Source: Lachnospiraceae bacterium (GTDB lineage: Bacteria; Bacillota; Clostridia; Lachnospirales; Lachnospiraceae). From it: a stretch of 62,214 nt of DNA. The notes beneath the pieces are model-generated. The model was not told the origin of the DNA and searched no databases. It saw nothing but the letters and a program-made list of their open reading frames with translations. This document shows, one piece after another, positions 43,935 to 56,583 of the stretch. The stretch lies in contig JAIKZD010000029.1 in the NCBI GenBank assembly GCA_024682555.1, positions 1 through 62,214 on the forward strand, written 5' to 3'. The position numbers and the translations under genes are program-made. The first letter of the stretch is position 1; every line of letters begins with the position of its first letter.

Positions 43935-44036
43935 TAAATATGAAGTTTGATCAAAAATACCGAAAAATACAGGCAGACCTTTCGGATTGCCTGTATCCTT
44001 ATCACATTTTAATCGTCCGACCACTTTCCTGTATAG

Positions 44037-44180
44037 CAGTCCAATCATCTCCCGGTCTTCCTGCTTAACTGCATAACAGTCTAACAATTTTCCTGCTTTA
44101 CCGCCAAGCAGTCCAACAGTCTTCCTGCTTGACAGTCCAACAATCTTCCTGCACGACAGTCCAACGGTCTTCCTGCTTGA
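44037..44180. repeat. 24-bp tandem repeat downstream of cysK
   Basis: Three abutting 24-base units (44109, 44133, 44157) of the form CAGTCCAACnnTCTTCCTGC, plus a fourth at 44077-44100 and a degenerate one at 44037. They end about 25 bases from the cysK stop. Confidence 0.9.
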
Positions 44181-44203
44181 CCCGGTTACGGTTTTATCCG
44201 GTT

Positions 44204-45136
44204 TTATTCGGTGAACAGTGCGGTTGAATAATATCTGTCGCCGCTGTCGGGAAGGAGGGCAACTATTACCTTTCCTTTGTTCTCCGGCTTCTTTGCAAGC
44301 TGAATGGCACCAAAGAGAGCTGCGCCCGATGAGATGCCGACGGAGATACCTTCCTTCTTTGCCAGAAGTTTTGCCGTATCAAAAGCATCCTGATTGGCGG
44401 CCTTGAAGACCTCATCATAGATCTTTGTATTGAGCACATCGGGAACAAATCCTGCGCCTATACCCTGGATCTTATGGGCACCTGCCCTGCCCTCGGAAAG
44501 AACCGGTGAATCCTCGGGTTCAAGTGCAACAACCTTTATATTAGGGTTCTGCTCCTTAAGATACTCACCTGTTCCCGTTACCGTACCGCCTGTTCCTACA
44601 CCTGCGATAAAGATGTCAACCTTTCCGTCCGTATCATTCCAGATCTCGGGACCGGTTGTAGCCTTATGTATTGCGGGATTTGCGGGATTAACAAACTGCC
44701 CGGGAATAAAGCTGGCAGGAAGCTCCTTCGCAAGCTCTTCAGCCTTTTCGATGGCACCTTTCATGCCCTTTGATCCTTCGGTAAGAACGATCTCGGCACC
44801 GTAACTCTTAAGTATGCTTCTGCGCTCTACGCTCATTGTCTCGGGCATGGTGAGGATGATCCTGTAGCCCTTGGAAGCAGCGATGGCTGCAAGGCCGATA
44901 CCCGTATTACCGGAGGTTGGCTCTATGATTACGGAGCCTTCCTTAAGAAGTCCCTTCTCCTCAGCGTCCTCGATCATTGCCTTTGCAATACGATCCTTTA
45001 CGCTCCCTGCGGGATTGAAGTACTCAAGCTTTACCAGAACGGTAGCCTCAAGACCCAGCTCCTTTTCAATATTTACCACCTCAACGAGCGGTGTGTTTCC
45101 AACAAGTCCCAATGTTCCTTTGTAAATGTTTGCCAT
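44204..45136 (-). CDS. cysK: Cysteine synthase A (O-acetylserine sulfhydrylase)
   Basis: PLP enzyme making cysteine from O-acetylserine and sulfide. 310 aa. The Schiff-base Lys is in NPAGSVKDRIA, the substrate loop in PTSGNTGIGL, the phosphate loop in GVGTGGTVTGTGEYLK, then GAGFVPDVLN and GISSGAAL. The ATG follows AAGGAAAA. It is the last gene of the MetY1-CysK unit. In B. subtilis CysK is also the co-repressor partner of the Rrf2 regulator CymR, which may be relevant because an Rrf2 gene heads this island; that link is inference. Confidence 0.97.
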   Translation of the reverse strand: MANIYKGTLGLVGNTPLVEVVNIEKELGLEATVLVKLEYFNPAGSVKDRIAKAMIEDAEEKGLLKEGSVIIEPTSGNTGIGLAAIAASKGYRIILTMPETMSVERRSILKSYGAEIVLTEGSKGMKGAIEKAEELAKELPASFIPGQFVNPANPAIHKATTGPEIWNDTDGKVDIFIAGVGTGGTVTGTGEYLKEQNPNIKVVALEPEDSPVLSEGRAGAHKIQGIGAGFVPDVLNTKIYDEVFKAANQDAFDTAKLLAKKEGISVGISSGAALFGAIQLAKKPENKGKVIVALLPDSGDRYYSTALFTE

Positions 45137-45264
45137 GATATTTTCCTTCTTTCTTTATTATTGATCATTCTTTGTATTCCGGTCTTATACGATCCGGATT
45201 TTTATGGTCATATCTAATGTATCCTATCCTCTGCGGTTTTACTCCGAATATTCTGCCCGGGTTA

Positions 45265-46548
45265 TCACCCTATAGCGGAAAAACCGTTCTCAAGATCCGC
45301 GATTATGTCATCGATGTGCTCTGTACCGATGGACAGGCGGATGGTGTTGGGATAGATGTCCTGCTCCGATAGTTCCTCATTCGAAAGCTGTGAATGAGTG
45401 GTGCTTGCGGGATGTATCACGAGACTCTTAACGTCCGCAACATTTGCAAGCAGGGAGAAGATCTTCAGGTTATCGATAAACTTCCAGGCTTCGTCCTGTC
45501 CGCCCTTTATCTCAAAGGTGAATATGGAAGCTCCTCCATTGGGGAAATACTTCTGATAAAGCGCATGATCCGGATGATCGGGAAGCGAGGGATGATTAAC
45601 CTTTACTACCTTCGGATGATTCTGTAAGTATTCTACCACCTTTTTGGTGTTCTCAGCATGCCTTTCCAGTCTTAAGGAAAGTGTTTCCACACCCTGTAAC
45701 AGGAGGAATGCCGAAAACGGTGCAATCGTTGCGCCTGTATCACGTAACAGAATGGCACGGATAAAGGTTACAAACGCAGCCGGTCCAACAACATCATAGA
45801 AGGATACGCCGTGATAGCTGGGATTGGGGGCTGCGATACCCGGATACTTTCCGCTTGCCTTCCAGTCAAACCTGCCGGACTCAACGATTATACCGCCAAG
45901 GGTTGTTCCGTGTCCGCCGATGAACTTGGTTGCGGAATGAACCACGATATCCGCACCGTGCTCGATGGGACGGAACAGATAAGGAGTTCCGAAGGTATTG
46001 TCAACCACAAGGGGAAGTCCGTGCTTATGTGCTATCTCCGCGATGGCATCAACATCCGGTATATCGCTGTTGGGATTGCCGAGGGTCTCAAGATAAACGG
46101 CCCTTGTATTATCCTTTATTGCATCTTCCACTTCCTTAAGATTGTGAGCATCGACAAAAGTCGTCTCTATCCCGTACTGGGGAAGTGTATGGGCAAGAAG
46201 ATTGTAGCTGCCGCCGTAGATCGTCTTCTGGGCTACAATATGCCCGCCGTTTGCGGCAAGTGCCTCGATGGTATAGGTTATGGCAGCCGCCCCTGATGCC
46301 AGGGCAAGGGCTGCGCTTCCCCCCTCCAGAGCCGCAAGCCTCTTTTCAAGTACCTCCTGTGTGGAATTTGTCAGTCTTCCGTAGATATTGCCCGCATCGG
46401 CCAGACCGAAGCGGTCTGCGGCATGCCTGCTGTTATGAAATACATAAGAAGTGGTCTGGTAAATGGGTACTGCTCTTGCATCGGTTGCGGGATCTGCTTC
46501 TTCCTGTCCCACGTGTAACTGTAAGGTTTCAAATCTGTAATCGCTCAT
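45265..46548 (-). CDS. metY: O-acetylhomoserine sulfhydrylase MetY (copy 1)
   Basis: PLP enzyme of the Cys/Met metabolism family that makes homocysteine from O-acetylhomoserine and a sulfur donor. 427 aa, full length. Family motifs: VPIYQTTSYVF, NIYGRLTNSTQEVLEKRLAA, ALASGAAAITY, the PLP Lys in VVHSATKFIGGHGTT, SLRLERHAENT, and LVIHPASTTHSQL. Sulfur could be free sulfide or a carrier thiocarboxylate; in Wolinella a MetY uses the carrier HcyS. It lies behind a Cys/Met-rich leader peptide and attenuator and is followed by cysK. Confidence 0.95.
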   Translation of the reverse strand: MSDYRFETLQLHVGQEEADPATDARAVPIYQTTSYVFHNSRHAADRFGLADAGNIYGRLTNSTQEVLEKRLAALEGGSAALALASGAAAITYTIEALAANGGHIVAQKTIYGGSYNLLAHTLPQYGIETTFVDAHNLKEVEDAIKDNTRAVYLETLGNPNSDIPDVDAIAEIAHKHGLPLVVDNTFGTPYLFRPIEHGADIVVHSATKFIGGHGTTLGGIIVESGRFDWKASGKYPGIAAPNPSYHGVSFYDVVGPAAFVTFIRAILLRDTGATIAPFSAFLLLQGVETLSLRLERHAENTKKVVEYLQNHPKVVKVNHPSLPDHPDHALYQKYFPNGGASIFTFEIKGGQDEAWKFIDNLKIFSLLANVADVKSLVIHPASTTHSQLSNEELSEQDIYPNTIRLSIGTEHIDDIIADLENGFSAIG

Positions 46549-46596
46549 GATAAATTTCTCCTATGCTCTTAAAGTCTTTGTTTATATCTGATCCGT

Positions 46597-46631
46597 AAAA
46601 AATGCCCGAAAGCTTTCATACTCCCGGACAT
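46597..46631 (-). terminator. Attenuator terminator of the metY-cysK unit
   Basis: Minus-strand stem ATGTCCG/CGGGCAT (one G-U pair; 46602-46608 with 46625-46631) followed by six T (46597-46602 on this strand). Bases 46620-46627 on its 5' arm are exactly complementary to 46706-46713 in the leader peptide gene (8 bp), which gives a competing antiterminator. Confidence 0.85.
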
Positions 46632-46654
46632 CTGGCTTAAGTGTTCTCTTTCAC

Positions 46655-46774
46655 TTATTCGGAGGCGCAACATCGGCATGCAGTCGCCCAAACCATATTA
46701 CCTGCCCGGGAGTTAAACATTCGCATACACCAACACATGATGTCTTTCTGATCATAGATAGCTTCTATTGACAT
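46655..46774 (-). CDS. 39-aa Cys/Met-rich leader peptide of metY-cysK
   Basis: An open frame with ATG at 46772-46774 and AAAGGAG about 10 bases upstream. The peptide has five Cys and five Met in 39 residues: MCWCMRM at 13-19, M27, and CRCC at 33-36, three residues before the stop. It sits between an Rrf2-type operator/promoter and an intrinsic terminator, upstream of genes for homocysteine and cysteine synthesis. The codons for N21-S22-R23 (AACTCCCGG) contain the antiterminator strand. The design is that of an amino-acid attenuator: slow decoding of Cys or Met codons should change the RNA fold. Not a family I know. Confidence 0.8.
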   Translation of the reverse strand: MSIEAIYDQKDIMCWCMRMFNSRAGNMVWATACRCCASE

Positions 46775-46807
46775 TATCTGCGCTCTCCTTTCCTCAAATC
46801 TGAATGT

Positions 46808-46844
46808 AGCTTATCATCATTTACCTACTATGTCAATAGGTATT
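46808..46844 (-). promoter_or_regulatory. metY-cysK promoter with overlapping Rrf2-type operator (copy 1)
   Basis: Minus-strand -35 TTGACA (46831-46836), 17-base spacer, -10 TAAGCT (46808-46813). The -35 is inside the imperfect palindrome ACCTACTATGTCAATAGGT (46823-46841, plus-strand reading). The 27 bases 46818-46844 are identical to those upstream of the Rrf2 gene at 56364-56390. Confidence 0.85.
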
Positions 46845-46918
46845 TTGATATTTTTTAAATTTTCTTTTCCGGCCTGATTATTTAACCCGTACTATAAGGA
46901 TCTGTTCTTTTTTCTCAT

Positions 46919-46990
46919 AAAAAACCCGGGACTCCTTTCAGCCCCGGGGATTTCTTTCAGACCCGGGACTCCTTTCAGCCCCGGGGATTT
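46919..46990 (-). terminator. Duplicated GC-rich terminator after tusA
   Basis: A 29-bp element with stem CCCGGG...CCCGGGG occurs twice (46925-46953 and 46962-46990); the second hairpin on the minus strand runs into six T (46919-46924). It ends the long sulfur operon before the metY-cysK promoter. Confidence 0.85.
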
Positions 46991-47011
46991 TCATCTTCGG
47001 TAACATTTATC

Positions 47012-47263
47012 TCAGTCACCTACTTTTTTTATATACAGCTCATAGGTTCCGTCGCCGTTTTCATCAAATCTTAAGATCTCATGACCCTCTTCCTTAACGC
47101 TCCTGGGAACGTTTTTTGCAGGCTCCCCGCTGTTTAGATGAACCTGCAGGATCTCGCCTTCTTCAAGTTCTTCAAGGGCAACCTTGGTCTTTACAAAGGT
47201 TATGGGGCATGTCACATCGGTTATGTCTATCCTGTCATTTACCGTAAATCCGGGTTCTGCCAT
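47012..47263 (-). CDS. TusA-family sulfur carrier
   Basis: 83 aa, the small alpha/beta TusA/SirA/YedF fold. The persulfide-carrying Cys is in DVTCPITFVKTKVALEEL, followed by EILQVHLNSGEPAKNVPRSV, the normal family layout; the second residue of the usual CPxP motif is kept but the second Pro is Thr. TusA proteins take a persulfide from a cysteine desulfurase and pass it on. It is the last gene of the long operon, 12 bases after JAMM peptidase 2, and may link the desulfurase to the E1/carrier system. Confidence 0.9.
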   Translation of the reverse strand: MAEPGFTVNDRIDITDVTCPITFVKTKVALEELEEGEILQVHLNSGEPAKNVPRSVKEEGHEILRFDENGDGTYELYIKKVGD

Positions 47264-47275
47264 TTATCTTTCCTC

Positions 47276-47704
47276 CTAAATTATTATCAGTTCCTCTTTG
47301 CGGACGCTCCTGTTATCCTGTTCCCCTTCCACATGGAAAGCATTCAGTACCGGAGCTTCCTTATGTTCGAGTGAAAGTATCAGATAACTTGCCTTACTGT
47401 CATTTGCAAGCCGTTTGTCCTCTTCCGACGGTCTTGACGGGGTCCCGGGATGGGAATGCCAGTTGCCCAGAGGCTTTAATCCCTTTGAGCGCATGTCTTT
47501 TATGGCTGCAAGCTGTTCCTTCGGATCTATGGAAAAATGCTCGTTTGTATGATCCGTATTTGTAAGCAGGTAAACATCCCTGATCTCCCTTGTGCCGTCT
47601 TCACTGTCAATGCCGGCGATCAGCCCGCAGGCTTCATCGGGCATTTCGGAGAGTGCATGCTTTAAGATCCTGTCAAAGTCCGATTTTTTTATGGTGATCC
47701 TCAT
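47276..47704 (-). CDS. JAMM/M67 metallopeptidase (copy 2)
   Basis: 142-aa zinc peptidase of the Mov34/MPN+ family. The zinc motif is complete: E24 (MPDEACGLIAG), H83 and H85 (NWHSHPGTPSRPS) and D96, in the HxHx10D spacing, with S93. Bacterial relatives next to carrier/E1 genes remove residues or amino acids from the carrier C-terminus (Mec+ on CysO; HcyD on HcyS). The adjacent carrier ends GGG-R, so removing that Arg is a plausible job. The start overlaps the E1 stop (ATGA). Confidence 0.92.
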   Translation of the reverse strand: MRITIKKSDFDRILKHALSEMPDEACGLIAGIDSEDGTREIRDVYLLTNTDHTNEHFSIDPKEQLAAIKDMRSKGLKPLGNWHSHPGTPSRPSEEDKRLANDSKASYLILSLEHKEAPVLNAFHVEGEQDNRSVRKEELIII

Positions 47705-48522
47705 GACGGACCTCCTGGCTTAAGATCACAGGCAGCCTGTTCGTAATCTATAAGCTCCGTGATGGTCGGCGTATCCGAACATACCGCACATCCTTTTCCC
47801 CTGGGGGGCAGTTTTATCTTATGAAACTCCATCTTCAGCGCATCATAAGTCAGCAGATATCCCGCAAGCAGCTCGCCGACACCGGTTATGTATTTCACGG
47901 CTTCCATGGCCTGAAGAGATCCGATCACTCCGCCCATAGCTCCGATCACACCGGCCTGTTTGCAGGTGGGAACCGCATCCTTCGGCGGGGGATTCTTAAA
48001 GATACATCGGTAACAGGGACTTTCCCCCGGTATTATGGTCGTAAGCTGTCCCTTAAACCGGATGATACCTGCATGGGACAGAGGTTTTTTTGCCATTACA
48101 CAGGCATCGTTGATCAGAAACTTTGCCGGAAAATTGTCCGTACCGTCTAAAATAAAATCATAATCCTTTATCAGATCCATGATATTGTCGCTGCTCACGA
48201 ATTCGTGATATGTGTTTACGGTCACGTCCGGATTAATGGCATTCATGGTCTCCGCGGCCGACTCGACTTTTTTCTTTCCGATATCGTTTGTTGTATGGAT
48301 CACCTGTCTCTGAAGGTTTGAAAGATCCACAATATCAGCATCGACGATCCCTATCGTCCCCACTCCTGCCGCCGCAAGATACAGGGCTGCGGGAGCACCG
48401 AGTCCGCCGGCACCGATTATTAAGACCTTCGCATTAAGCAGTTTTTTCTGACCCTTTGCCCCGATCTCCTTCAGTATTATATGTCTTGAATAACGTTCAA
48501 GCTGCTCGCCTGTAAAAGCCAT
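47701..48522 (-). CDS. E1-like adenylyltransferase (ThiF/MoeB/HesA family)
   Basis: 273 aa. It would adenylate the C-terminal Gly of a ubiquitin-like sulfur carrier and help convert it to a thiocarboxylate. Motifs: nucleotide loop VLIIGAGGLGAPAALYLAAA, SNLQRQVIHTTNDIG, FILDGTDNFPAKFLINDAC, zinc Cys pairs CYRC and CAVC, and the possible catalytic Cys in VPTCKQAGVIGAMGG. The start overlaps the stop of the small carrier gene (TAATG) and its stop overlaps the JAMM start, so the three are tightly coupled. The partner is the small carrier directly upstream. Confidence 0.94.
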   Translation of the reverse strand: MAFTGEQLERYSRHIILKEIGAKGQKKLLNAKVLIIGAGGLGAPAALYLAAAGVGTIGIVDADIVDLSNLQRQVIHTTNDIGKKKVESAAETMNAINPDVTVNTYHEFVSSDNIMDLIKDYDFILDGTDNFPAKFLINDACVMAKKPLSHAGIIRFKGQLTTIIPGESPCYRCIFKNPPPKDAVPTCKQAGVIGAMGGVIGSLQAMEAVKYITGVGELLAGYLLTYDALKMEFHKIKLPPRGKGCAVCSDTPTITELIDYEQAACDLKPGGPS

Positions 48523-48728
48523 TATCTGCCTCCTCCCATAAAATACAGGAACTCCACCTCATCCCCTTCCCTGAGTTCATGGGAATCAAATGCGGAAGCA
48601 TCTATAAACTCTTCGTTTACGGAAACCGTGACGTACTGCGGTGTTTCAACCTGCTCCTTCTCAATGAGGGCTGCTACGGTAATACCCTCCGGAACTTCCC
48701 TTGTCTCGCCCGCAACTGTTATCTTCAT
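48522..48728 (-). CDS. ThiS/MoaD-like sulfur carrier with a one-residue C-terminal extension
   Basis: 68 aa from the ATG at 48726-48728, 9 bases after AAGGAGG (an ATG two codons earlier is too close to it). Ubiquitin-like fold: KITVAGETREVPEGITVAAL, then VTVSVNEEFID, ELREGDEVEFLYFMGGGR. Ordinary ThiS ends in Gly-Gly; here an Arg follows GGG (residues 65-67, R68). It must be trimmed to expose Gly before adenylation, which fits the JAMM peptidase gene two genes downstream. It starts 14 bases after epsC. Confidence 0.88.
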   Translation of the reverse strand: MKITVAGETREVPEGITVAALIEKEQVETPQYVTVSVNEEFIDASAFDSHELREGDEVEFLYFMGGGR

Positions 48729-48742
48729 CTTCATAAACCTCC

Positions 48743-49702
48743 TTATATCATATAGAACCACTCTTCGCTCTGTTTCACTTCTTCCGTGACTATCTTATTG
48801 TCTCTCGTACGGTATTCCATTTCGGGGTTCTTCATGCTCACTCTGGTATTCTCCGGGACGGATCCCGTAATGAATGTGTTACCGCCTATAACCGAATTTG
48901 CGCCTATCACGGTGTCTCCCCCGAGTATTGAGGCCCCTGCGTAAATAGTAACGTTGTCTCCTATGGTGGGGTGACGTTTTCTCCCGGAGAGCTTCTGACC
49001 TCCTCTTGTCGAAAGCGCTCCAAGAGTAACGCCCTGATAGATCTTTACATTTTTTCCTATGACGGCTGTCTCGCCAATGACTATTCCTGTTCCGTGATCG
49101 ATAAAAAACGATCGGTCTATCGTTGCACCCGGATGTATATCAATACCGGTTTCCGAATGCGCATACTCGGTCATCAGTCTGGGTATCACGGGCACCCTGA
49201 GCAGATAAAGCTCGTGGGCCATTCTGTATACGGTGACTGCCATGAGCCCGGGATAGGCTAAGATTATCTCTTCCACACAATAGGCGGCCGGATCTCCGTC
49301 AAGGGCAGCCAAAAGATCCGTTTCGATAAGCTCCCTGATAACAGGGATCCTTTCAAAGAAAACATTGCAGATACGGTAGCTTTCGGCCCTTCTCTCTTCT
49401 TCGGTAAGGGTTCCCCTGAGCCTGCAGAAATCAAGAGCCATGAACACCTGCTTGTTTAAATGATAATAAATATCCTCAAGAGTAACGGCAGCGGTGTTTT
49501 TCGGATTATATATCTTGAACGCTCTTTCCCTGTAATAACCCGGATAGACAACCCTGAAGAGATTGTCGACTACCTCTCTTACCTCCGCCTTGTCCGGCCT
49601 GTTATAGATATTGAAAGCATCTATGTTCTTTCCGCCCTCATAATCCTTTAACACCTTCCGGACAAGTGTATCCACTTCTGTTTCCCTGATAGTCTCTTCC
49701 AT
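48743..49702 (-). CDS. epsC: Serine O-acetyltransferase, EpsC type
   Basis: Makes O-acetylserine, the CysK substrate. 319 aa: a helical N-terminal domain (~1-170) and a left-handed beta helix of hexapeptide repeats (IDIHPGATIDRSFFIDHGTG, VIGETAVIGKNVKIYQGVTL, RHPTIGDNVTIYAGASILGG). Catalytic His in DIHPGA and DHGTG. The long N-terminus is that of EpsC rather than CysE. Start after GGAGGG. EpsC-type acetyltransferases are known neighbours of family 2A encapsulin and cysteine desulfurase genes, in line with the present context. Confidence 0.95.
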   Translation of the reverse strand: MEETIRETEVDTLVRKVLKDYEGGKNIDAFNIYNRPDKAEVREVVDNLFRVVYPGYYRERAFKIYNPKNTAAVTLEDIYYHLNKQVFMALDFCRLRGTLTEEERRAESYRICNVFFERIPVIRELIETDLLAALDGDPAAYCVEEIILAYPGLMAVTVYRMAHELYLLRVPVIPRLMTEYAHSETGIDIHPGATIDRSFFIDHGTGIVIGETAVIGKNVKIYQGVTLGALSTRGGQKLSGRKRHPTIGDNVTIYAGASILGGDTVIGANSVIGGNTFITGSVPENTRVSMKNPEMEYRTRDNKIVTEEVKQSEEWFYMI

Positions 49703-49737
49703 CTGATCTCACCCTCCTGATCCCGGCCATTTTGCGG

Positions 49738-49835
49738 ATCCACACCCCGTTTGGGTCTTTTTCTGAAATCTCTGCCCCGCTCAGGTCTTTTGTATATCCA
49801 CACCCCGTTCAGATCTTTTTCTGAAATCTCTGCCC
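49738..49835. repeat. 58-bp tandem duplication between the desulfurase and epsC
   Basis: Two ~40-base copies starting ATCCACACCCCGTT and ending TTTTTCTGAAATCTCTGCCC (49738-49778 and 49796-49835), with a related spacer. A hairpin GCCCG(GAAAC)..(GTTTC)GGGC follows just after the desulfurase stop (about 49831-49852). Confidence 0.85.
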
Positions 49836-49856
49836 GAAACGGTTTCCGGGCAGCCC

Positions 49857-51467
49857 TCACGCAAAGGTTCTAAGTACTTTTACCAGCGCATCGATGTCAT
49901 CCGGCGAATTATAAAGTGCAAGCGTGGGTCTGACCGAACTTTCATATCCGAACCGCCTGAGTACCGGCTGGGCACAATGATGGCCCGTGCGAACCGCTAT
50001 ACCGTAACTGTCAAGGCGTTTTCCGACTTCCTCATCGGAATAACCGTCCAATTTAAAGGACAGTACCGAAGCCTTGTCAAGGGCTGTGCCGATAAGGGTG
50101 AGACCCGGGATCGCTTTCATCTCTTTTATTGCATACTGTAAGAGCTCATGTTCCCATCTGTATACGCAGGGCATTCCGATCTCCGACAGATATTTAAGGG
50201 CGGCTCCGAGTCCGACTGCATCCGCGATGCTTCCCGTTCCCGCTTCGAATTTGTTGGGAATATCGTTATATATCGTTCTTTCAAATGTCACATCCGCGAT
50301 CATATTGCCGCCGCCGTGATAAGGCTCTGCTGCCTCCAGAAGCTCCCTCTTTCCGTACAGAACACCGATACCCGTAGGTGCGAAGATCTTATGTCCGGAA
50401 AAAACAAAGAAGTCTGCATCAAGTGCGGATACATTCACGGGAATATGCGCAACGGACTGCGCCCCGTCGATCATTATCCTTACTCCGTGTCTGTGGGCAA
50501 TGGCTATGAGTTCTTCAACCGGGGTTACCGTTCCCAGAACATTTGAAACATGGGTCACGGCAACAAATTTAGTACGCTTCGTAAACAGTTTTTCATATTC
50601 CGAAAGGATCAGCTGGCCGGTCTCATCACAGGGGATCACCTTTATGACCGCACCCGTCTTTTCGGCTATCAGCTGCCAGGGAACAATGTTTGCATGATGT
50701 TCAAGGATCGACACGATGATCTCATCCCCGGGTGTCAGCATGGGCTTAACGCAGGCGTTTGCAACAAGGTTTATGCCCTCCGTGGTCCCCCGGACAAATA
50801 TGATCTGTGAGGAATCCGGAGCACCTATAAATTCTCTTACCGTATTTCTGGCATCCTCGTAAGCGTCTGTGGATCTTGCGGCAAGAGTATGCGCACCCCT
50901 GTGGACATTTGAATTTTCATGTTCGTAATAATAGGACAGCCGGTCTATGACAGCCCGGGGTCTCTGGGTTGTTGCACCGTTATCAAGCCACACCAGAGGG
51001 TTTCCGTTTATCCTCTCGGAAAGGATCGGAAAATCTTTTCTGATCTGTGCAAGAGTTTTTGAACCTATCCGGATGGAATCATCTCTTGTGGTTTTCTCTT
51101 CCTCTTTTGATGACGATACCCCGTCTCCCTGAAGATAAGTAGGTACATCGATCCTTCTGTCACTCTCTGCGGCCGCTGTTTTGGACTGTACTTTCGGAGA
51201 GTAGGACCGGACAGCTTCACTTTCCCCATAGGCAAAGGGATGCTCCCAGTCAAAAATATCCGCATACGAAGTTCCCGCTTCCGTTACATAGGACTCTGAA
51301 ATACCCGCGTCCGCAGGATACAGTCCGGTTACGGCTGCCTCTGAAGGTTCGGACACGGCACTGTCCGAAAGATCCGGAAACATTTCATTTGCTAAGATCG
51401 TTAACATATCCGCTCCCGGAAGCCCCAACGCTTCCTCGGATACGGCATAGGGATCAGTCATAGTCAT
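49857..51467 (-). CDS. SufS-type cysteine desulfurase with a long N-terminal extension, probable encapsulin cargo
   Basis: About 536 aa, against ~405 for ordinary SufS. The first ~130 residues are low-complexity, Ser/Glu/Ala-rich and without a fold I recognise (EEALGLPGADMLTILANEMF, then DWEHPFAYG and SSSKEEEK). The catalytic part then starts KTLAQIRKDFPILSERINGN. It has HH in SILEHHANIVPW, the PLP Lys in FVFSGHKIFAPTGIGVL, and the nucleophile C498 in RTGHHCAQPVLRRFG. Family 2A encapsulins load such desulfurases through the disordered N-terminus. The ATG (51465-51467, or one two codons later) lies inside the shell gene, overlapping its end by 14 (or 8) bases, which points to coupled synthesis. 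Confidence 0.93.
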   Translation of the reverse strand: MTMTDPYAVSEEALGLPGADMLTILANEMFPDLSDSAVSEPSEAAVTGLYPADAGISESYVTEAGTSYADIFDWEHPFAYGESEAVRSYSPKVQSKTAAAESDRRIDVPTYLQGDGVSSSKEEEKTTRDDSIRIGSKTLAQIRKDFPILSERINGNPLVWLDNGATTQRPRAVIDRLSYYYEHENSNVHRGAHTLAARSTDAYEDARNTVREFIGAPDSSQIIFVRGTTEGINLVANACVKPMLTPGDEIIVSILEHHANIVPWQLIAEKTGAVIKVIPCDETGQLILSEYEKLFTKRTKFVAVTHVSNVLGTVTPVEELIAIAHRHGVRIMIDGAQSVAHIPVNVSALDADFFVFSGHKIFAPTGIGVLYGKRELLEAAEPYHGGGNMIADVTFERTIYNDIPNKFEAGTGSIADAVGLGAALKYLSEIGMPCVYRWEHELLQYAIKEMKAIPGLTLIGTALDKASVLSFKLDGYSDEEVGKRLDSYGIAVRTGHHCAQPVLRRFGYESSVRPTLALYNSPDDIDALVKVLRTFA

Positions 51468-52413
51468 AGTATTCACCCACTTCCACATCTTCCAGAACCG
51501 CTATGGCATCATCCGCAAGAATCGCAGCCGAGCAGTACAGAGACAGAAGATAGGAAGCAACACCCTTATCGTCTATTCCGCGGAAACGAACGGAAAGGCC
51601 TCTTGAATGCTCATTCTTGAGTCCTGCCTGGAACAGTCCGATAACACCTCTCTTTGCTTCGCCTGTACGGATCAGAAGGATATTGGTCTTTCCGCTCTGT
51701 GACTCGGGATTCTTGAGTCCGTCAACAAGAAGCTTGTCGGTGGGAATAACGGGGATACCTCTCCAGGTTAAGAAGGTTCCGCCGGCAAGGTTTACAACTA
51801 CGGGAGGAACACCCCTCTTTGTGCATTCTCTCTCAAAAGCTGCGATGGCTCTGGGATGTGCAAGGAAGAAGGAAGGCTCCTTCCATACCTTCGAGATAAG
51901 CTCATCCAGATCATCAGGCGTGGGGGCCCCGTTTCTGGTCTGTATACGCTGGGAATCCGCAATATTCTTTAAAAGGCCGTAGTCATCATTGTTGATGAGC
52001 TGGCTCTCCTGACGTTCCCTTAAGGATTCGATGGCAAGACCGAGCTGCTCCTGTACCTGATCGTAGGGTGAACTGTAAACATCCTCCACCGCCGTATTAA
52101 CGTTGATTATCGTTGAAATGGAATTAAGTACATATTCCCTGGGTTCTGTCTCATACTCCACATAACCGTCCGGGATTATATCCGATTTTTTGGTCTGGCT
52201 GCAGAGCACATCAAGGGGTGTTTCACCCTCCACCACCTTATTGACACGAAAGATTCCGGTCTCAAGGCCCTTGAATTCCAGGAATTTCGTCAGCCACTTG
52301 GGTGTCAGCGCACCGTACTGGGGTTTTGTCTTTGTGACATTTGCGAGATTATATGCAGCTTTAGCCGAAAGCGCATTGATCCCTGTGTTCTTTGCTTCTG
52401 TTTCCTTTGCCAT
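51454..52413 (-). CDS. Family 2A encapsulin shell protein (SrpI-like)
   Basis: 319 aa, the length of family 2A encapsulins without the cNMP-binding insertion of family 2B. The HK97-type fold is indicated by the conserved end GLSVRFRGIDDKGVASYLLS, LYCSAAILADDAIAVLEDVE, and by the earlier LNSISTIINVNTAVEDVYSS, ESLRERQESQLINNDDYGLL and FLTWRGIPVIPTDKL. The protein should self-assemble into an icosahedral shell in the cytoplasm. The following gene is the cysteine desulfurase expected as cargo. Start after GGAGG with 10-base spacing; the fusion gene lies 62 bases upstream. Identified from remembered family motifs, not by search. Confidence 0.93.
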   Translation of the reverse strand: MAKETEAKNTGINALSAKAAYNLANVTKTKPQYGALTPKWLTKFLEFKGLETGIFRVNKVVEGETPLDVLCSQTKKSDIIPDGYVEYETEPREYVLNSISTIINVNTAVEDVYSSPYDQVQEQLGLAIESLRERQESQLINNDDYGLLKNIADSQRIQTRNGAPTPDDLDELISKVWKEPSFFLAHPRAIAAFERECTKRGVPPVVVNLAGGTFLTWRGIPVIPTDKLLVDGLKNPESQSGKTNILLIRTGEAKRGVIGLFQAGLKNEHSRGLSVRFRGIDDKGVASYLLSLYCSAAILADDAIAVLEDVEVGEYYDYD

Positions 52414-52475
52414 TTTTTCTTTTCCTCCTTGTGTAAAACTGTGTATCGTTCAGACTGTCAAAGGTTTTTTGATAT

Positions 52476-53933
52476 CTATAGTCTTCCTCCCTCGTTAGAG
52501 AAGATGATATCCTTCATAGCATCTATCCCGCCCTTTAAGTTATACATAGGGCCTTTAAATCCTGCTTCTCGAAGCGTATTTATCGCAAGTATGCTACGTT
52601 TGCCTTCCTTGCAGACAAAGATCGTATCATGCTCCGGATCCAGTTCCTTCTGCCTCCTTACAAGCTGTCCTATGGGGATGACTATGGCATTCGGGAAGTG
52701 CAGTATCGCTCTCTCATGGGGTTCCCTGACGTCGACTATTGTGATCTTATCCCCTTTCTCTATCCTTTCCGCCAGTTCCTCGGGAGTAAATCCTTCCACG
52801 GGTACCTCATTTGCATCTTCCCTGAGGCCGCAGAATTCCTCATAATCAAAATCGGTCAGTTCGGTGATCGTCGGTTCATCCCCGCACAGTAAACAGCGGC
52901 AGTTTCTTTTTACCGTCAGAATATCCGGGGAAAGCCCCAGGGTATCCACGTGCAGCAGTTTACCGCTTAAGTGTTCCCCGATACCTATGATCAGTTTCAG
53001 GGCTTCATTAGCCTGAATACTGCCTACTATCCCCGCAAGAGGGCTGATGGTCCCGCCTTCCGCACAGGTTGGAACAAGTCCCGGTTTGGGGGGCTCCGGA
53101 AACAGACACCTGAGGCAGGGTCCGCCCTTATATCCGAACACGCTTACTTCGCCTTCATACTGATAGACGGACCCGAACACAAGCGGGATCCCGCTTAATA
53201 CGCAGGCGTCATTTATCAGATATCTGGCCTTATAATTGTCGGTACAGTCGATCACCAGATCAAAGCCTTCAATGAGTGAAAGTGCATTACCCGCATCAAT
53301 CTTCACATTTTCCTCGATGACCCGGATGCTTCTGTCAGTATTCCTGATCTTATCCCTCGCCGAGGCGACCTTAGGCCTTTTAATATCTCTTGAGGTATGT
53401 ATCACCTGGCTCTGAAGGTTTTCAACGGATACGGTATCGAAATCAATGACCTTTATCGTACCCACGCCCGCCGCGGCAAGGTACTGTATCACCGGTGATC
53501 CCAGGGCTCCCGCCCCGACGATGACCACCTTTGCGGCCTTTATCCTTTTCTGTCCCCTGACGCCGATCTCTCTTAACAGAAGGTGTTTATTGAATCTCTC
53601 CACCTCTTTGTCGTCAAGGCTCACTTCTTTTCTTCTCTCATCGGAAATAATGCTTTCCTGTCCGGATCCTCCCGCCACAAAAGGAAGCAGGAGTATCTCG
53701 GATATCCCGTCAAGAGGCTTTAAGCGGGCCGTTTCATCCGTCAGATCCTGTCCTTTTGCGAAGATCCTTATAAAACTCCTGAGCTTTCCGTTTTCATCGT
53801 AAAGTCCTTTTTTTGCCTCCGGAAATCTTTCCGTAAGATCTTTCAGTATCTCATTTACGGTATTTCCTTCCGCCGTAAGCTCCGTATTTCTTTCAAAAAA
53901 AGATCTCAGGGTCGCGGATATCACAACTTTCAA
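52476..53933 (-). CDS. Sulfur carrier - E1 - rhodanese fusion protein
   Basis: 485 aa with three domains. Residues 1-92 are a MoaD/ThiS-like ubiquitin fold ending in an internal Gly-Gly (LLLPFVAGGSGQE, G88-G89). Residues ~108-345 are an E1 adenylyltransferase (VVIVGAGALGSPVIQYLAAA, NLQSQVIHTSRDIK, DCTDNYKARYLINDAC, zinc CLRC and CRCLLC). Residues ~375-485 are a rhodanese with C441 in IFVCKEGKRS. The internal GG could be exposed by the JAMM peptidase encoded just upstream. The start is a TTG at 53931-53933, 9 bases after AAGGAG, inside the JAMM gene (41-base overlap). The C-terminus reads GGRL. Confidence 0.92.
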   Translation of the reverse strand: MKVVISATLRSFFERNTELTAEGNTVNEILKDLTERFPEAKKGLYDENGKLRSFIRIFAKGQDLTDETARLKPLDGISEILLLPFVAGGSGQESIISDERRKEVSLDDKEVERFNKHLLLREIGVRGQKRIKAAKVVIVGAGALGSPVIQYLAAAGVGTIKVIDFDTVSVENLQSQVIHTSRDIKRPKVASARDKIRNTDRSIRVIEENVKIDAGNALSLIEGFDLVIDCTDNYKARYLINDACVLSGIPLVFGSVYQYEGEVSVFGYKGGPCLRCLFPEPPKPGLVPTCAEGGTISPLAGIVGSIQANEALKLIIGIGEHLSGKLLHVDTLGLSPDILTVKRNCRCLLCGDEPTITELTDFDYEEFCGLREDANEVPVEGFTPEELAERIEKGDKITIVDVREPHERAILHFPNAIVIPIGQLVRRQKELDPEHDTIFVCKEGKRSILAINTLREAGFKGPMYNLKGGIDAMKDIIFSNEGGRL

Positions 53934-54357
53934 TGTTCCGGTCTCCTTCCGTATTTTTTACCCATGCTCTGATCACGGGCTTTTTTTCACTCATAAGGGA
54001 AACGATCATATATATAAAACCGGGTATCATGTCTCCCTTATCCTCAGCAGAGGGCTCGGCCGCAGCATTTGGATGGGAATGGTAAAAACCGATCAGTTCA
54101 AGTCCCTTTTTTTCAAACAGCTGCTCCTTTCGGAAAAGCTCAAGGGGATCGATGCCGTAATGGGAACCTCTATGTCCCGGAAGGACCCGGTTTCGCATGC
54201 TCACCGATTGTGTTATCCTTGCACTCCCGTCTTCCGAAACACTTCCGAATAACAGGCCGCAGCATTCCTCCGGATAACGGATCACTGCATCTTTTAGCGT
54301 CTCCCTGTATATTTCTTCCGAAAGCTCCGCTCTCTCCGGCATTACTGTTTTCTCCAT
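53893..54357 (-). CDS. JAMM/M67 metallopeptidase (copy 1)
   Basis: 154 aa. Zinc motif complete: E31 (YPEECCGLLFG), H93, H95 (FYHSHPNAAAEPSAEDKGDM) and D106, with S103. Only moderately similar to copy 2 of this island. Its 3' end overlaps the start of the carrier-E1-rhodanese fusion by 41 bases, so the likely substrate is the carrier part of that fusion, cleaved after Gly-Gly, or a carrier-amino acid product. It follows the MetY2 gene by 134 bases that contain a tandem repeat. Confidence 0.92.
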   Translation of the reverse strand: MEKTVMPERAELSEEIYRETLKDAVIRYPEECCGLLFGSVSEDGSARITQSVSMRNRVLPGHRGSHYGIDPLELFRKEQLFEKKGLELIGFYHSHPNAAAEPSAEDKGDMIPGFIYMIVSLMSEKKPVIRAWVKNTEGDRNIESCDIRDPEIFF

Positions 54358-54390
54358 TTATCTCTTCCCGGGGCACTGCGGGACCCTACT

Positions 54391-54533
54391 GATCTCCATA
54401 CTTCTCACCGGGCCTCTTACGTTCCCGTATTTCTTACCGGACCTCATACGTTCCCGTATTTCTTACCGGATCTCCCACGTTTCCGCGTTCCTTACCTGAC
54501 ATCATCCGTTTCCGTATTCCTGACCGCGTTCAG
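54391..54533. repeat. 29-bp tandem repeat overlapping the 3' end of the second MetY-like gene
   Basis: Units at 54418, 54447, 54476 and 54505 (29 bases each), with a degenerate one before them at about 54391. Two units share TACGTTCCCGTATTTCTTAC exactly. The unit at 54505-54533 encodes the last residues of the MetY-like protein, so the array seems to have grown out of the gene's end. Confidence 0.9.
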
Positions 54534-55748
54534 AAAATCCTCCGTCAGGTCATTTATATCCTCGATCCCCACGCTGACCCTTACCGTATCCTCATAAACC
54601 CCGGCGGCCTCTCTTTCTTCCTCACTCAGACGCGCATAAAGTGTTGATGAGGGGTGTATCACCAGTGTCCTCAGATCTCCGATATTGCTTGCTATCAAAG
54701 AATATTTAAGACTGTTTACGATCTTAAAAGCTCTTTCTTTTGAGCCGGCCCTGAAGGTTAAGATCCCTCCTCCGTATCCGTTAAGCTGCCTGTTTACATA
54801 CTCACGGAAGGGATGATCTTTAAGGGTCAGGTAATTTACCGTGATATCCTTCTCTTTATCCAGAGCATGTGCAAGTGCATCAGCATTTTTACAGATCCTT
54901 TCCATCCGAAGGCCCAGTGTTTCGACTCCTATATAGGAAAGATAAGCATTCACCGGAGACATACACCCGCCCAGGTTTTCCCACAGATCCGTACGAAGTC
55001 TTAGGAGAAAAGCCATTTTCCCGTATTTTTTATATTCCGAAAGGGCCTTGTGTTTCGTGAAATCCCAGGGGAATTTTCCGCCGTCAACGATCATCCCGCC
55101 TATTGAGTTGCCGCCCCCGTTTATATATTTGGAAGTCGAATGGATCACCACATCGGCACCCAGAGATAAGGGAGTTACAAGAAAAGGCGTTGCGGTCGTG
55201 GCGTCGACAAAAAGCGGTATTCCGGCCTCATGCGCCGCTTCCGAGGCCTCCTTTATATCAAGCACATTCAGTGAGGGATTGCTGATTACCTCCCCGAAAA
55301 CAGCCTTTGTCCTTTCATTTGCAAGTTCCCTTATGGTCTTCCCGTTAAGAACATCCGCAAAAACCGTATGTATGCCGAGTTTTTCAAGATCATGAAACAG
55401 ATCCAGGGTCCCGCCGTAGAGGCCTTTCCCCGCTATTATCTCATCTCCGCTTTCACAGACATTGAAGATTGTGGAAGATATTGCAGCCATTCCGCTGCTG
55501 CAGCTTATGGCCCCTATGCCGCCTTCTAGGATATTGATCTTCTGCTCAAAGGCGCTTAGGGTGGGATTTCCGATCCTCGTATACGCAAACCCCATGCTTT
55601 TATGGGAAAAGACTTTTTCAAGCTCTTCCATGCTCTCATAGGAAAATGCGCTGACCTGTGATATGGCGGGCAGGATTTCCCCCTGTCCCTTTAGATTTTT
55701 CAGCCCTTTATGTAAAAGTCCGGTAGTAAATCCGCAGTCCTGTTTCAT
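54492..55748 (-). CDS. MetY-like O-acetylhomoserine sulfhydrylase family enzyme (copy 2)
   Basis: 418 aa PLP enzyme of the Cys/Met metabolism family. Motifs: LPAISQVSAFSYESMEELE, FAYTRIGNPTLSAFEQKINI, SCSSGMAAIS, the PLP Lys in VVIHSTSKYINGGGNSIGGM, VETLGLRMERICKNADALA and LVIHPSSTLYARL. It differs clearly from copy 1 (for example GGGNS in place of GGHGTT), so a different sulfur donor or acceptor is possible. It is the first enzyme gene of the long operon, downstream of the Rrf2 gene. Its last codons lie in a tandem repeat. Confidence 0.9.
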   Translation of the reverse strand: MKQDCGFTTGLLHKGLKNLKGQGEILPAISQVSAFSYESMEELEKVFSHKSMGFAYTRIGNPTLSAFEQKINILEGGIGAISCSSGMAAISSTIFNVCESGDEIIAGKGLYGGTLDLFHDLEKLGIHTVFADVLNGKTIRELANERTKAVFGEVISNPSLNVLDIKEASEAAHEAGIPLFVDATTATPFLVTPLSLGADVVIHSTSKYINGGGNSIGGMIVDGGKFPWDFTKHKALSEYKKYGKMAFLLRLRTDLWENLGGCMSPVNAYLSYIGVETLGLRMERICKNADALAHALDKEKDITVNYLTLKDHPFREYVNRQLNGYGGGILTFRAGSKERAFKIVNSLKYSLIASNIGDLRTLVIHPSSTLYARLSEEEREAAGVYEDTVRVSVGIEDINDLTEDFLNAVRNTETDDVR

Positions 55749-55870
55749 TTTTCTCCCTGTAAATGATCCCTTACTCCCTGTAAAAGCTTCCTGTTTCCTT
55801 CCCGGATTACAATCTTTCTTTCCACCGGGAAAAGCTTCTTCTCATGCTGCCTGACGCAGACCACATCCCT

Positions 55871-56311
55871 TCAGATCACATAAAGATCCCAGTTTTTCGA
55901 TGACCTGTTGCGGCATTCGTTGGCAAATTCGCTGAGTTTTAACCCCTGCACATACCGGTTCAGACTTTGATTTATTTTTCCCCAGAAGCAGTCATTTATC
56001 ACAAAACCAAGGGCTTCCGGATCCTCGACTGTATCCATGTCCGCAAGGATATTCTGGTCAAGGGCGTTCAAAACATCGGAAAGCGTGATCTTATCCGGCG
56101 AACAGGCTAATACGTATCCGCCCTTCAAACCCTTCTGGGCACTTATGAAACCTGCCTGTCTTAACAACAGAAGAATATGTTCGAGGTATTTGTGCGAAAT
56201 GTTCTGCCTTTTGGCAATATCCGGTGCGGACACGCTCTCCCCGTTCTCACTGTTGATCACGATATCCGTTAAGGCTATAAGACCGTATTCCACTCTTGTC
56301 GATACTCTCAT
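55871..56311 (-). CDS. Rrf2-family regulator, CymR-like, first gene of the sulfur operon
   Basis: 146 aa. Winged helix typical of Rrf2: MRVSTRVEYGLIALTDIVIN, SAPDIAKRQNISHKYLEHIL LLLRQAGFISAQKGLKGGYVLA. It lacks the Cys triad of Fe-S Rrf2 proteins such as IscR, as CymR does. I use the ATG at 56309-56311, 6 bases after AGGAAGGA. Its own promoter contains the same 27-bp sequence as that of metY-cysK, so it probably represses itself, the long operon and metY-cysK in response to sulfur status. Confidence 0.88.
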   Translation of the reverse strand: MRVSTRVEYGLIALTDIVINSENGESVSAPDIAKRQNISHKYLEHILLLLRQAGFISAQKGLKGGYVLACSPDKITLSDVLNALDQNILADMDTVEDPEALGFVINDCFWGKINQSLNRYVQGLKLSEFANECRNRSSKNWDLYVI

Positions 56312-56353
56312 CTTCATTCCTTCCTGTCTTGTTTTGGTTTGCTTACTGGATAC

Positions 56354-56390
56354 TTTATATCACCATTTACCTACTATGTCAATAGGTATT
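56354..56390 (-). promoter_or_regulatory. Sulfur operon promoter with Rrf2-type operator (copy 2)
   Basis: Minus-strand -35 TTGACA (56377-56382), 17-base spacer, -10 TATAAA (56354-56359). The -35 lies within ACCTACTATGTCAATAGGT (56369-56387). Bases 56364-56390 match 46818-46844 exactly, and the promoter spacing is also the same. Confidence 0.88.
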
Positions 56391-56447
56391 ATGCAGGCAG
56401 TCTCCACACTCGCTTGATTTGCCTGTTTACCTTGCGGTATACTATGT

Positions 56448-56549: not shown

Positions 56550-56583
56550 CGGAATATTAAACCGACAGCAGGAGGATGATCCC

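What the first reader, a model, noticed from the sequence alone, without database searches (positions are those of the whole stretch)
44204..56390. An encapsulin sulfur island: shell, desulfurase cargo, two carrier/E1/JAMM modules, two MetY enzymes, CysK and TusA under one operator
Seen: on one strand, in order, Rrf2, MetY2, JAMM1, carrier-E1-rhodanese fusion, family 2A encapsulin, cysteine desulfurase with disordered N-terminus, EpsC, ThiS-like carrier, E1, JAMM2, TusA, then MetY1 and CysK. Known: family 2A encapsulins package cysteine desulfurases and often sit with EpsC; carrier/E1/JAMM/MetY sets make homocysteine in Wolinella (HcyS/HcyD/HcyF), and CysO/Mec+ make cysteine in mycobacteria. 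Inference: here the shell feeds persulfide sulfur to protein thiocarboxylate carriers for both Cys and Met synthesis. I do not know of a described system joining all these parts, and the two modules flank the shell-cargo core.
Basis: partly seen in the sequence, partly recalled or inferred. Interest (0 to 1): 0.93.

Follow-up and report, generated by a model that had tools for sequence, protein, structure and literature searches.

The report
Encapsulin-coupled double sulfur-carrier assembly line
Many rumen-type Lachnospiraceae carry one conserved gene cluster that joins a virus-like protein shell, its predicted sulfur-releasing cargo enzyme and two ubiquitin-like sulfur-carrier pathways, which together likely build cysteine and the precursor of methionine without letting sulfur escape as free sulfide.

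Summary
In detail: all 13 genes are there, in the stated order. The set is conserved. Of 54 distinct encapsulin loci with enough flanking sequence, 46 have the carrier-E1-rhodanese gene and 38 both carrier modules; in the window's genus encapsulin and JAMM genes are both present (23) or both absent (14) in 37 of 37 genomes. Rearrangements sort the genes into a shell module (JAMM1, carrier-E1-rhodanese, shell, desulfurase, EpsC; cysteine synthase beside it in some relatives) and a MetY2 module (MetY2, TusA, ThiS-like carrier, E1, JAMM2) that also exists without encapsulin. They match two operon types described in 2006. New here are their union with a family 2A encapsulin and a carrier fused to its own E1. 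The fused carrier keeps an internal Ala-Gly-Gly in 203 of 203 rows, in a low-confidence, probably flexible linker; two unfused relatives end in Gly-Gly plus two residues. JAMM1 is the likely releasing peptidase. A shared operator and a Cys-codon leader point to induction by cysteine shortage. Genome content argues against thiamine or molybdopterin use. That sulfur passes from the packaged desulfurase to the carriers is inferred. Verdict: real, a new variant of known kinds.

The parts
55871..56317 (-). Rrf2-family regulator (Rrf2a), CymR/IscR-like, first gene of the operon
   Evidence: PF02082 92.0 bits; NF047409 CymR 74.2 bits, below cut-off 195
54492..55748 (-). MetY2, O-acetylhomoserine sulfhydrylase-like; belongs to module 2
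   Evidence: TIGR01326 393 bits, below cut-off 495; moves with ThiS/E1/JAMM2/TusA in rearranged loci; 3ri6 (Wolinella MetY, organism recalled) third-best PDB match at 299.5 bits
53893..54357 (-). JAMM1 peptidase of module 1
   Evidence: PF14464 71.5 bits; H-S/T-H...S..D motif in 78 of 78 distinct JAMM1 frames of relatives
52476..53933 (-). Carrier (residues 1-89) - E1 - rhodanese fusion; TTG start overlaps JAMM1
   Evidence: PF02597, PF00899, PF00581; AGG at residues 87-89 in 203 of 203 rows
53667..53672 (-). Codons of Gly88-Gly89, predicted JAMM cleavage point before Ser90
   Evidence: Coordinates; invariant; pLDDT under 50 at residues 84-98 of P0001 = 87-101 here
51454..52413 (-). Family 2A encapsulin shell protein
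   Evidence: NF041162 491.6 bits, cut-off 380; PF19307 320.2
49857..51488 (-). Cargo cysteine desulfurase with a low-complexity N-terminal loading segment
   Evidence: NF041166 784.4 bits; N-terminal ILANEMFPDL resembles the SrpI cargo motif LARLANEFFS (PMC8049743 passages)
48743..49702 (-). EpsC-type serine O-acetyltransferase
   Evidence: NF041874 157.8 bits, over cut-off 150
48522..48731 (-). ThiS-like carrier of module 2 (ATG start used; a GTG start at 48761 is possible), ending FLYFMGGGR
   Evidence: TIGR01683 68.0 bits, cut-off 37.45; LYFMGGG followed by at least one residue in 77 of 77 distinct frames of relatives
47701..48522 (-). E1-like adenylyltransferase of module 2, no rhodanese
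   Evidence: PF00899 299.4 bits; crossover Cys 59 of 59 aligned rows
47276..47704 (-). JAMM2 peptidase of module 2
   Evidence: PF14464 92.8 bits; motif in 78 of 78 distinct JAMM2 frames of relatives
47012..47263 (-). TusA-like persulfide carrier
   Evidence: PF01206 72.5 bits; Cys 54 of 54 aligned rows
56369..56387 (-). Operator ACCTATTGACATAGTAGGT holding the -35 TTGACA, upstream of Rrf2a
46823..46841 (-). Same operator upstream of MetY1-CysK
46925..46948 (-). Terminator-like hairpin with T run after TusA
   Evidence: scan total not above shuffles
46655..46774 (-). Leader peptide ORF MSIEAIYDQKDIMCWCMRMFNSRAGNMVWATACRCCASE upstream of MetY1
46600..46713 (-). Predicted attenuator: arm A 46713-46703 (SRA codons), arm B 46630-46620, terminator arm C 46613-46600 plus U tract
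45265..46548 (-). MetY1, O-acetylhomoserine sulfhydrylase; probably separate transcript, same operator
   Evidence: TIGR01326 622.6 bits over cut-off
44204..45136 (-). CysK cysteine synthase, downstream of MetY1
   Evidence: TIGR01139 451 bits over cut-off

Best explanation
The cluster encodes a family 2A encapsulin, a cysteine desulfurase that is its likely cargo, and two complete sulfur-carrier modules that are predicted to carry the desulfurase's sulfur as protein thiocarboxylates into cysteine (module 1) and homocysteine (module 2). Steps: (1) cysteine shortage would open the promoters through the shared operator and, at MetY1-CysK, the Cys-codon attenuator (sequence shown; regulation inferred). 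(2) The desulfurase would load through its N-terminal segment, with its sulfur kept on the enzyme or in the lumen (inferred from SrpI work). (3) JAMM1 is predicted to cut the carrier-E1-rhodanese precursor after Gly89, giving a free carrier with a Gly-Gly end and an active E1-rhodanese; JAMM2 would trim the residue after GGG of the ThiS-like carrier. (4) The rhodanese (module 1) and TusA (module 2) would take persulfide sulfur and the two E1s would make the thiocarboxylates. (5) EpsC would supply O-acetylserine for CysK (CysM-type in some relatives); MetA would supply acyl-homoserine for MetY2. (6) JAMM1 would also release cysteine from the carrier, as Mec+ does with CysO.
For: Gene set and families. 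Co-conservation: of 54 distinct loci with at least 5.5 kb on both sides, 38 have both modules, 8 module 1 only, 8 neither. In the genus, 23 encapsulin-positive genomes all have JAMM and 14 negative ones have none (Fisher 1.6e-10, kinship not corrected), and 36 of 42 over-cut-off JAMM hits in these 23 lie within 8 kb of the shell gene, the other 6 on other contigs (3 weaker hits left out). Module membership by rearrangement, and CysK-family genes directly before JAMM1 in G123, G127 and G188; the two of these three that I classified are CysM-like. Fused carrier: P84 and AGG 87-89 in 203 of 203 rows (186 distinct), in a linker of pLDDT under 50 between folded domains; unfused carriers in G123 and G127 end AGGCL and AGGRV. 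Precedent: MoaX must be cut after its GG (PMC4326299, abstract) and a JAMM protease cuts a MoaD-MoaE fusion (PMC8832034, passages). Module types match Iyer 2006 rows 4c and 4e, including that the E1 without rhodanese always goes with SirA (PMC1779556, passages). No full ThiG and no MoaE in the 18 encapsulin-positive genomes tested. No sulfite reductase domain in G000 and in 35 of 37 genus members; MetA-type HTS present. The third operator site in the genome precedes a MetQ/NlpA-SBP transporter operon.
Against: No transfer step is shown. A cysteine-consuming enzyme in what looks like a cysteine-shortage regulon is a paradox unless its sulfur is recovered or stored. JAMM1 is missing in 4 of 76 loci that have the fusion and at least 3.5 kb upstream (L204, L061, L069, L225); JAMM2 or another peptidase must act there. 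Module 2 is missing near the shell in 8 of 46, and stands alone in 6 of the 11 genomes fetched that have strong JAMM hits but no encapsulin (G038, G044, G107, G139, G152, G166), so it does not need the shell. Twelve fetched shell loci have the desulfurase but no fusion module. G000 has two CysK-type and no CysM-type synthase, so the partner of carrier 1 in the window is a guess. The two genus members that do have a sulfite reductase domain, G018 and G024, are encapsulin-positive. The attenuator is in front of MetY1-CysK in the window, not in front of the encapsulin operon.
Confidence: 0.6

Rival explanations
1. Sulfur bank: the packaged desulfurase fills the shell with sulfur when cysteine is plentiful, and the carrier modules mainly serve to withdraw it later.
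For: Desulfurase encapsulins are called sulfur storage systems (PMC12407261 passage); rhodaneses are enriched accessories (PMC8346489 passages). It removes the paradox of a desulfurase in a cysteine regulon.
Against: Shared operator with cysteine/methionine synthesis and a MetQ/NlpA-type uptake operon, and Cys-codon leaders before the encapsulin operon in seven relatives, point to expression when cysteine is short, not when it is in excess. No sequence feature that I saw speaks for a solid sulfur core.
Confidence: 0.2
2. Neighbours only: encapsulin-desulfurase and carrier modules are independent cysteine-shortage genes that share regulation; the carriers get sulfur from sulfide or from a free desulfurase, not from the shell.
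For: Module 2 alone and shell-desulfurase alone both exist; another desulfurase-type gene, IscS-like by eye in the five proteins printed, follows the same operator in some relatives.
Against: The fusion was not seen in the stretches fetched around JAMM genes of 11 genomes without shell (G129 had only weak E1 and JAMM1 matches); order JAMM1-fusion(or split carrier and E1)-shell-desulfurase is kept in every locus where JAMM1 is present and the contig runs on.
Confidence: 0.17
3. Ubiquitin-like conjugation: carriers are attached to proteins and JAMMs remove them, as with archaeal SAMPs.
For: Best NCBIfam match of both JAMMs is desampylase, below its cut-off (76.4 and 65.7 of 130 bits); carrier 1 matches SAMP1 at 40.5 of 60 bits.
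Against: The operon's other genes match sulfur-metabolism or regulator families and none an E2 or E3; GG plus short tails fit carrier trimming.
Confidence: 0.02
4. Thiamine or molybdopterin synthesis.
For: ThiS and MoeB/ThiF family matches; a thiamine diphosphokinase gene lies nearby at 42560-43213.
Against: No ThiG match in G000 and no full-length one in 36 of 37 genomes; the one exception, G129, has no encapsulin match. MoaE in 2 of 37, G006 and G011, both without encapsulin.
Confidence: 0.01

Closest known systems
Family 2A encapsulin with cysteine desulfurase cargo (SrpI type; PMC8049743, PMC8346489)
   Same: SrpI-like shell, SufS-type cargo with disordered N-terminus and LANEFF-like motif, serine acetyltransferase and a rhodanese domain nearby
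   Different: Rhodanese is fused to a carrier and an E1; two JAMMs, a second carrier and E1, TusA and MetY are in the operon. The passages I read name only acetyltransferases and rhodaneses as enriched accessories, and 'ThiF' occurs in neither main text; their supplementary tables were not seen
CysO-MoeZ-CysM-Mec+ cysteine pathway (PMC3227635, passages); Iyer type 4c operon (PMC1779556, passages)
   Same: Carrier with GG, E1 fused to rhodanese, JAMM, cysteine synthase (CysM-like next door in some relatives)
   Different: Carrier fused to its E1; packaged desulfurase in the operon; in the window the synthase is CysK in a probable second transcript
   Same: ThiS-like carrier, E1 without rhodanese, JAMM, SirA/TusA, MetY
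   Different: No sulfate-reduction genes among the 13; joined to an encapsulin module
Cut carrier fusions (MoaX, protease unidentified; DR MoaD-MoaE, cut by a JAMM; PMC4326299 abstract, PMC8832034 passages)
   Same: Internal GG between a carrier and a fused partner, cut to expose Gly
   Different: There the fused partner is MoaE; here it is the carrier's own E1 plus rhodanese

Membership tests
Family 2A encapsulin | SrpI-like HK97 shell without cNMP-binding domain | tested here: met
   NF041162 491.6 (cut-off 380); 319 aa, one Pfam match PF19307; NF041163 (2B) 379.4 under its cut-off of 400
Family 2A encapsulin | Cysteine desulfurase cargo with N-terminal loading segment encoded next to the shell | tested here: met
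   Overlapping gene; NF041166 784.4, slightly below cut-off 800; AN..FP motif conserved in the N-terminal segment
Family 2A encapsulin | Shell assembly and cargo loading | not testable with these tools
   Needs purification
CysO-type cysteine synthesis | Carrier with GG made available at its C-terminus | tested here: inconclusive
   GG internal in the fusion (203 of 203); split relatives end GG+2; cleavage not shown
CysO-type cysteine synthesis | E1-rhodanese and JAMM partner | tested here: met
CysO-type cysteine synthesis | CysM-type synthase acting on the carrier thiocarboxylate | tested here: inconclusive
   CysM-like genes beside JAMM1 in the two relatives classified; in G000 only CysK types
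HcyS/MetY homocysteine synthesis | ThiS-like carrier, E1, JAMM and MetY in one module | tested here: met
HcyS/MetY homocysteine synthesis | MetY of the thiocarboxylate-using kind | tested here: inconclusive
   3ri6 is third-best match for MetY2 (299.5 bits) and 29th for MetY1 (272.0); that 3ri6 is the Wolinella enzyme is recalled; no tree made
HcyS/MetY homocysteine synthesis | Thiocarboxylate-dependent homocysteine formation | not testable with these tools
   Needs enzymology
Thiamine thiazole synthesis | ThiG present | tested here: not met
   none in G000; only full-length match in 37 genomes is G129, no encapsulin
Molybdopterin synthesis | MoaE present | tested here: not met
   none in G000; 2 of 37, both encapsulin-negative
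Bacterial ubiquitin-like conjugation | E2-like enzyme and conjugated targets | not tested
   No E2-like family among the operon's matches; no dedicated search made; targets not testable

The most novel reading that the evidence does not exclude
A closed sulfur economy: a protein shell captures cysteine sulfur as persulfide or stored sulfur and pays it out only through two self-maturing ubiquitin-like carriers, one born fused to its own E1-rhodanese and freed by a JAMM peptidase, so that a sulfide-poor anaerobe can move sulfur between cysteine and methionine with no free sulfide at any step. This would supply a dedicated sulfur donor for CysO-type chemistry.
Probability: 0.4. Interest if true: 0.88.

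Novelty: new variant of a known kind. Interest (0 to 1): 0.76.

Why it matters
Two open questions meet here. What desulfurase encapsulins are for beyond housing the enzyme is unsettled, and for the mycobacterial CysO pathway the sulfur source was still called unknown in the 2011 paper whose passages I read (PMC3227635). A conserved operon that puts a packaged desulfurase, rhodanese, carriers and the Cys/Hcy-forming enzymes together makes both directly testable with purified parts. It would also be the first encapsulin tied to ubiquitin-like chemistry that I could find: no held paper has encapsulin together with cysteine desulfurase and JAMM, none with encapsulin, sulfur metabolism and Lachnospiraceae, and none of the 20 papers listed (of 42) holds the word encapsulin. 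Subscription papers and preprints were not searched.

Tried and rejected
Thiamine/molybdopterin use: rejected on ThiG and MoaE. A single 13-gene operon: rejected as unlikely, a strong hairpin after TusA and a second operator-promoter separate MetY1-CysK, though the scans as a whole do not beat shuffled sequence. MetY2 as partner of JAMM1: rejected on gene orders. Rfam scan of 44000-57000 at the gathering threshold found nothing. A simple Cys-codon ORF count alone was weak (33 of 76 leaders against 13 of 76 shuffled); the shared peptide motif and arm pairing are the better evidence, but the motif pattern was written after seeing examples, and the arm script failed in 3 of 15 (L048 and L070 no A:B pairing above shuffles, L088 no U run). 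CCCGGG in arms A and B is self-complementary, which inflates the pairing. My first context count dropped three loci with a split shell match (L216, L224, L226); it was redone and the neither class rose from 6 to 8. Encapsulin tree: quick method, 43 rows (36 fusion-bearing including the window, 7 of the 12 carrier-free shells) thinned from 90, long branches; fusion-bearing shells cluster but G123/G127 are unresolved against the carrier-free G167. Papers on the Wolinella pathway itself did not come up; that HcyD trims HcyS, and a 2024 report of elemental sulfur in such shells, are recalled, not read. A wider control among other bacterial classes was not made (one search failed).


Full report
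WHAT IS THERE. On the minus strand from 56317 to 47012 run Rrf2a, MetY2, JAMM1, a carrier-E1-rhodanese fusion, a family 2A encapsulin shell, a cysteine desulfurase with a long N-terminal segment, EpsC, a ThiS-like carrier, an E1, JAMM2 and TusA; then, after 463 bases, MetY1 and CysK. Several genes overlap (JAMM1/fusion 41 bases, shell/desulfurase 35, carrier/E1 1, E1/JAMM2 4, by the coordinates used here). Catalytic residues are intact: the JAMM H-S/T-H...S..D motif in 78 of 78 distinct JAMM1 and 78 of 78 JAMM2 frames of relatives; in the rows used for profiles, E1 crossover Cys 59 of 59 and 77 of 77, rhodanese Cys 78 of 78, desulfurase Cys 79 of 79, TusA Cys 54 of 54. The genome (G000, 3.1 Mb in 159 contigs, completeness 95.7, contamination 5.8) has no Prok-JAB match outside this locus.

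HOW WIDELY. Among 195 genomes (G000 and relatives), 30 match the shell model, 29 over its cut-off. In the window's genus (37 genomes) 23 have the shell and all 23 have JAMM matches; 14 have neither (Fisher 1.6e-10, not corrected for kinship). In samples of the class and phylum, 7 of 391 and 7 of 398 genomes match, G000 included in both. A scan of one genome per species gave 517 confirmed relatives, of which the best 80 were kept. I annotated fetched loci with profiles built from these. Of 121 loci with a shell gene, 100 remain after removing identical ones, and 54 of those have at least 5.5 kb on both sides (the other 46 and the window itself were left out of this count). Of the 54: both modules 38, module 1 only 8, neither 8. 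In the 46 with module 1: desulfurase 46, JAMM1 45, EpsC 42, MetY2 40, ThiS-like/E1/JAMM2/TusA 38 each, CysK 9, MetY1 5 (which replaces). The kept loci are mostly close kin of the window, so these are not independent events. Two MAGs named Fibrobacter succinogenes and two named Ruminobacter carry the set with shells 89-94 percent identical to the window's, which suggests transfer in the rumen, though misbinned contigs are not excluded.

TWO MODULES. Gene order is the cleanest evidence. The commonest order is MetY2-JAMM1-fusion-shell-desulfurase-EpsC-carrier2-E1-JAMM2-TusA (20 loci exactly, and more with small changes). In rearranged loci the block JAMM1-fusion-shell-desulfurase(-EpsC) stays together and MetY2 goes with TusA, carrier 2, E1 and JAMM2 (for example L035, L086, L093, L105, L110). 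In 8 of 46 only the first block is near the shell; for G123 the second block, without a MetY in the stretch fetched, lies on another contig (L179). Eleven genomes had a strong JAMM hit and no encapsulin: in 6 the second block stands alone (G038, G044, G107) or with CysK (G139, G152, G166), G124 shows part of it at a contig end, G050, G119 and G178 show a JAMM2-like gene only in the stretch fetched, and G129 only weak matches. Next to the first block G123, G127 and G188 carry CysK-family genes; of the two I classified, L180's scores best as CysM (350.9 bits, cut-off 394) and L183's as CysK/M (344.4, over 344.15) with CysM next (334.5). L105 has a CysK between the blocks. So module 1 looks like a cysteine branch and module 2 a homocysteine branch. 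Iyer and colleagues described both operon types in 2006: 4c with carrier, E1-rhodanese, JAB and cysteine synthase, and 4e with carrier, JAB, E1 without rhodanese, SirA and O-acetylhomoserine sulfhydrylase (PMC1779556, passages). The passages I read do not mention encapsulins.

THE FUSED CARRIER. A thiocarboxylate carrier must end in a free Gly-Gly, yet here it is followed by its own E1. Across 203 aligned rows (the best 120 of 7957 database hits plus 83 proteins from loci; 186 distinct), Pro84 and Ala87-Gly88-Gly89 never vary, while the residues just behind vary in letters and length (Arg100, near the start of the E1, is invariant too). In the AlphaFold model (mean pLDDT 76.6) residues 87-101 (84-98 of P0001) fall below 50 between a folded carrier and a folded E1; the top solved folds are Uba4 and MoeB-MoaD. 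In G123 and G127 the carrier is a separate gene and ends AGGCL and AGGRV. The plain reading is that JAMM1 cuts after the second Gly in both forms. MoaX, a MoaD-MoaE fusion, is cut after its Gly-Gly by an unidentified protease and needs this for activity (PMC4326299, abstract), and a Deinococcus JAMM cuts such a fusion (PMC8832034, passages). The ThiS-like carrier ends LYFMGGG plus at least one further residue in 77 of 77 distinct frames, 48 of them with exactly one, which would need JAMM2. Against a strict pairing, 4 of 76 loci with the fusion and at least 3.5 kb upstream lack JAMM1.

REGULATION. An identical operator, ACCTATTGACATAGTAGGT with the -35 box TTGACA inside it, precedes Rrf2a and MetY1. 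In all of G000 there are three sites at up to 3 mismatches (two exact, one with 1) against two for the reversed control; the third lies just before a MetQ/NlpA-SBP_bac_3 binding protein with two permeases and an ATPase. In fetched relatives 95 sites (not deduplicated) lie before MetY2 (40), Rrf2 (20), a desulfurase-type gene (10), MetY1 (7), a rhodanese match (4), CysK (3), JAMM1 (3) or E1 (1); 7 have no recognised gene. Between operator and MetY1 lies a leader peptide with Cys codons (46774-46655) whose SRA codons can pair with the 5' arm of a terminator before MetY1. Fifteen distinct leaders share the motif, 14 of them within 220 bases below an operator; seven precede the encapsulin operon in relatives (L040, L048, L063, L065, L079, L089, L090), seven precede MetY1 or CysK (the window's included), and L064 had no recognised gene. 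Arms and terminator were found in 12 of 15. This is the layout of a cysteine-responsive attenuator (attenuation logic from general knowledge; not shown here).

MECHANISM. The likely flow is cysteine to packaged desulfurase persulfide, then to rhodanese or TusA, then to carrier thiocarboxylate by the E1s, then to O-acetylserine (EpsC, CysK or CysM) and acyl-homoserine (MetA, MetY2). G000 has a MetA-type enzyme and no sulfite reductase domain (absent in 35 of 37 in the genus, and the two exceptions G018 and G024 are encapsulin-positive), so its sulfur probably comes as sulfide or organic sulfur. The paradox of consuming cysteine when it is short is solved if the sulfur is conserved on proteins, or was stored before; SrpI is itself raised by sulfur starvation, although its knockout showed no growth defect, and encapsulation raised desulfurase turnover about sevenfold (PMC8049743, passages). 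Shown: genes, orders, motifs, conservation, absence of ThiG/MoaE/sulfite reductase matches. Inferred: loading, cleavage, sulfur transfer, attenuation.

VERDICT. Each module is a known kind and the shell is a clear family 2A member. Their stable union and the self-fused, predicted JAMM-matured carrier are new to me; the held-paper searches that bear on it returned no paper joining encapsulin with JAMM or, among those listed, with ThiF or sulfur carrier proteins. I file it as a new variant of known kinds.

Noticed in passing
46774-46600 (-): Cys-codon leader peptide and terminator/antiterminator arms before MetY1-CysK; the same leader motif (CCRM..SRA..MAGA) occurs in 15 distinct places in fetched loci and the window, seven of them before the encapsulin operon. 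No Rfam family matched.
   Followed up: partly
G000:C75:11240-11258 (-), L230: Third copy of the operator, one mismatch, just upstream of a fused MetQ/NlpA-SBP_bac_3 binding protein with two permeases and an ATPase.
   Followed up: yes
about 46987-46925 (-): The hairpin CCCGGGGCTGAAAGGAGTCCCGGG occurs twice in tandem after TusA; only the second has a T run.
   Followed up: no
56584-58130 (+): A second Rrf2 regulator and a PTS_EIIC_2 membrane protein run divergently from the operon.
   Followed up: no
L058, L071, L074, L077: JAMM2 and TusA lie in one open frame without a stop, apparently fused.
   Followed up: no
L056, L081, L187, L191, L194: A desulfurase-type gene, IscS-like by eye, follows the same operator in some relatives.
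   Followed up: partly
L086, L110, L106, L109: MAGs named Fibrobacter succinogenes and Ruminobacter carry the set with shells 89-94 percent identical to the window's: transfer between phyla in the rumen, or misbinning.
   Followed up: partly
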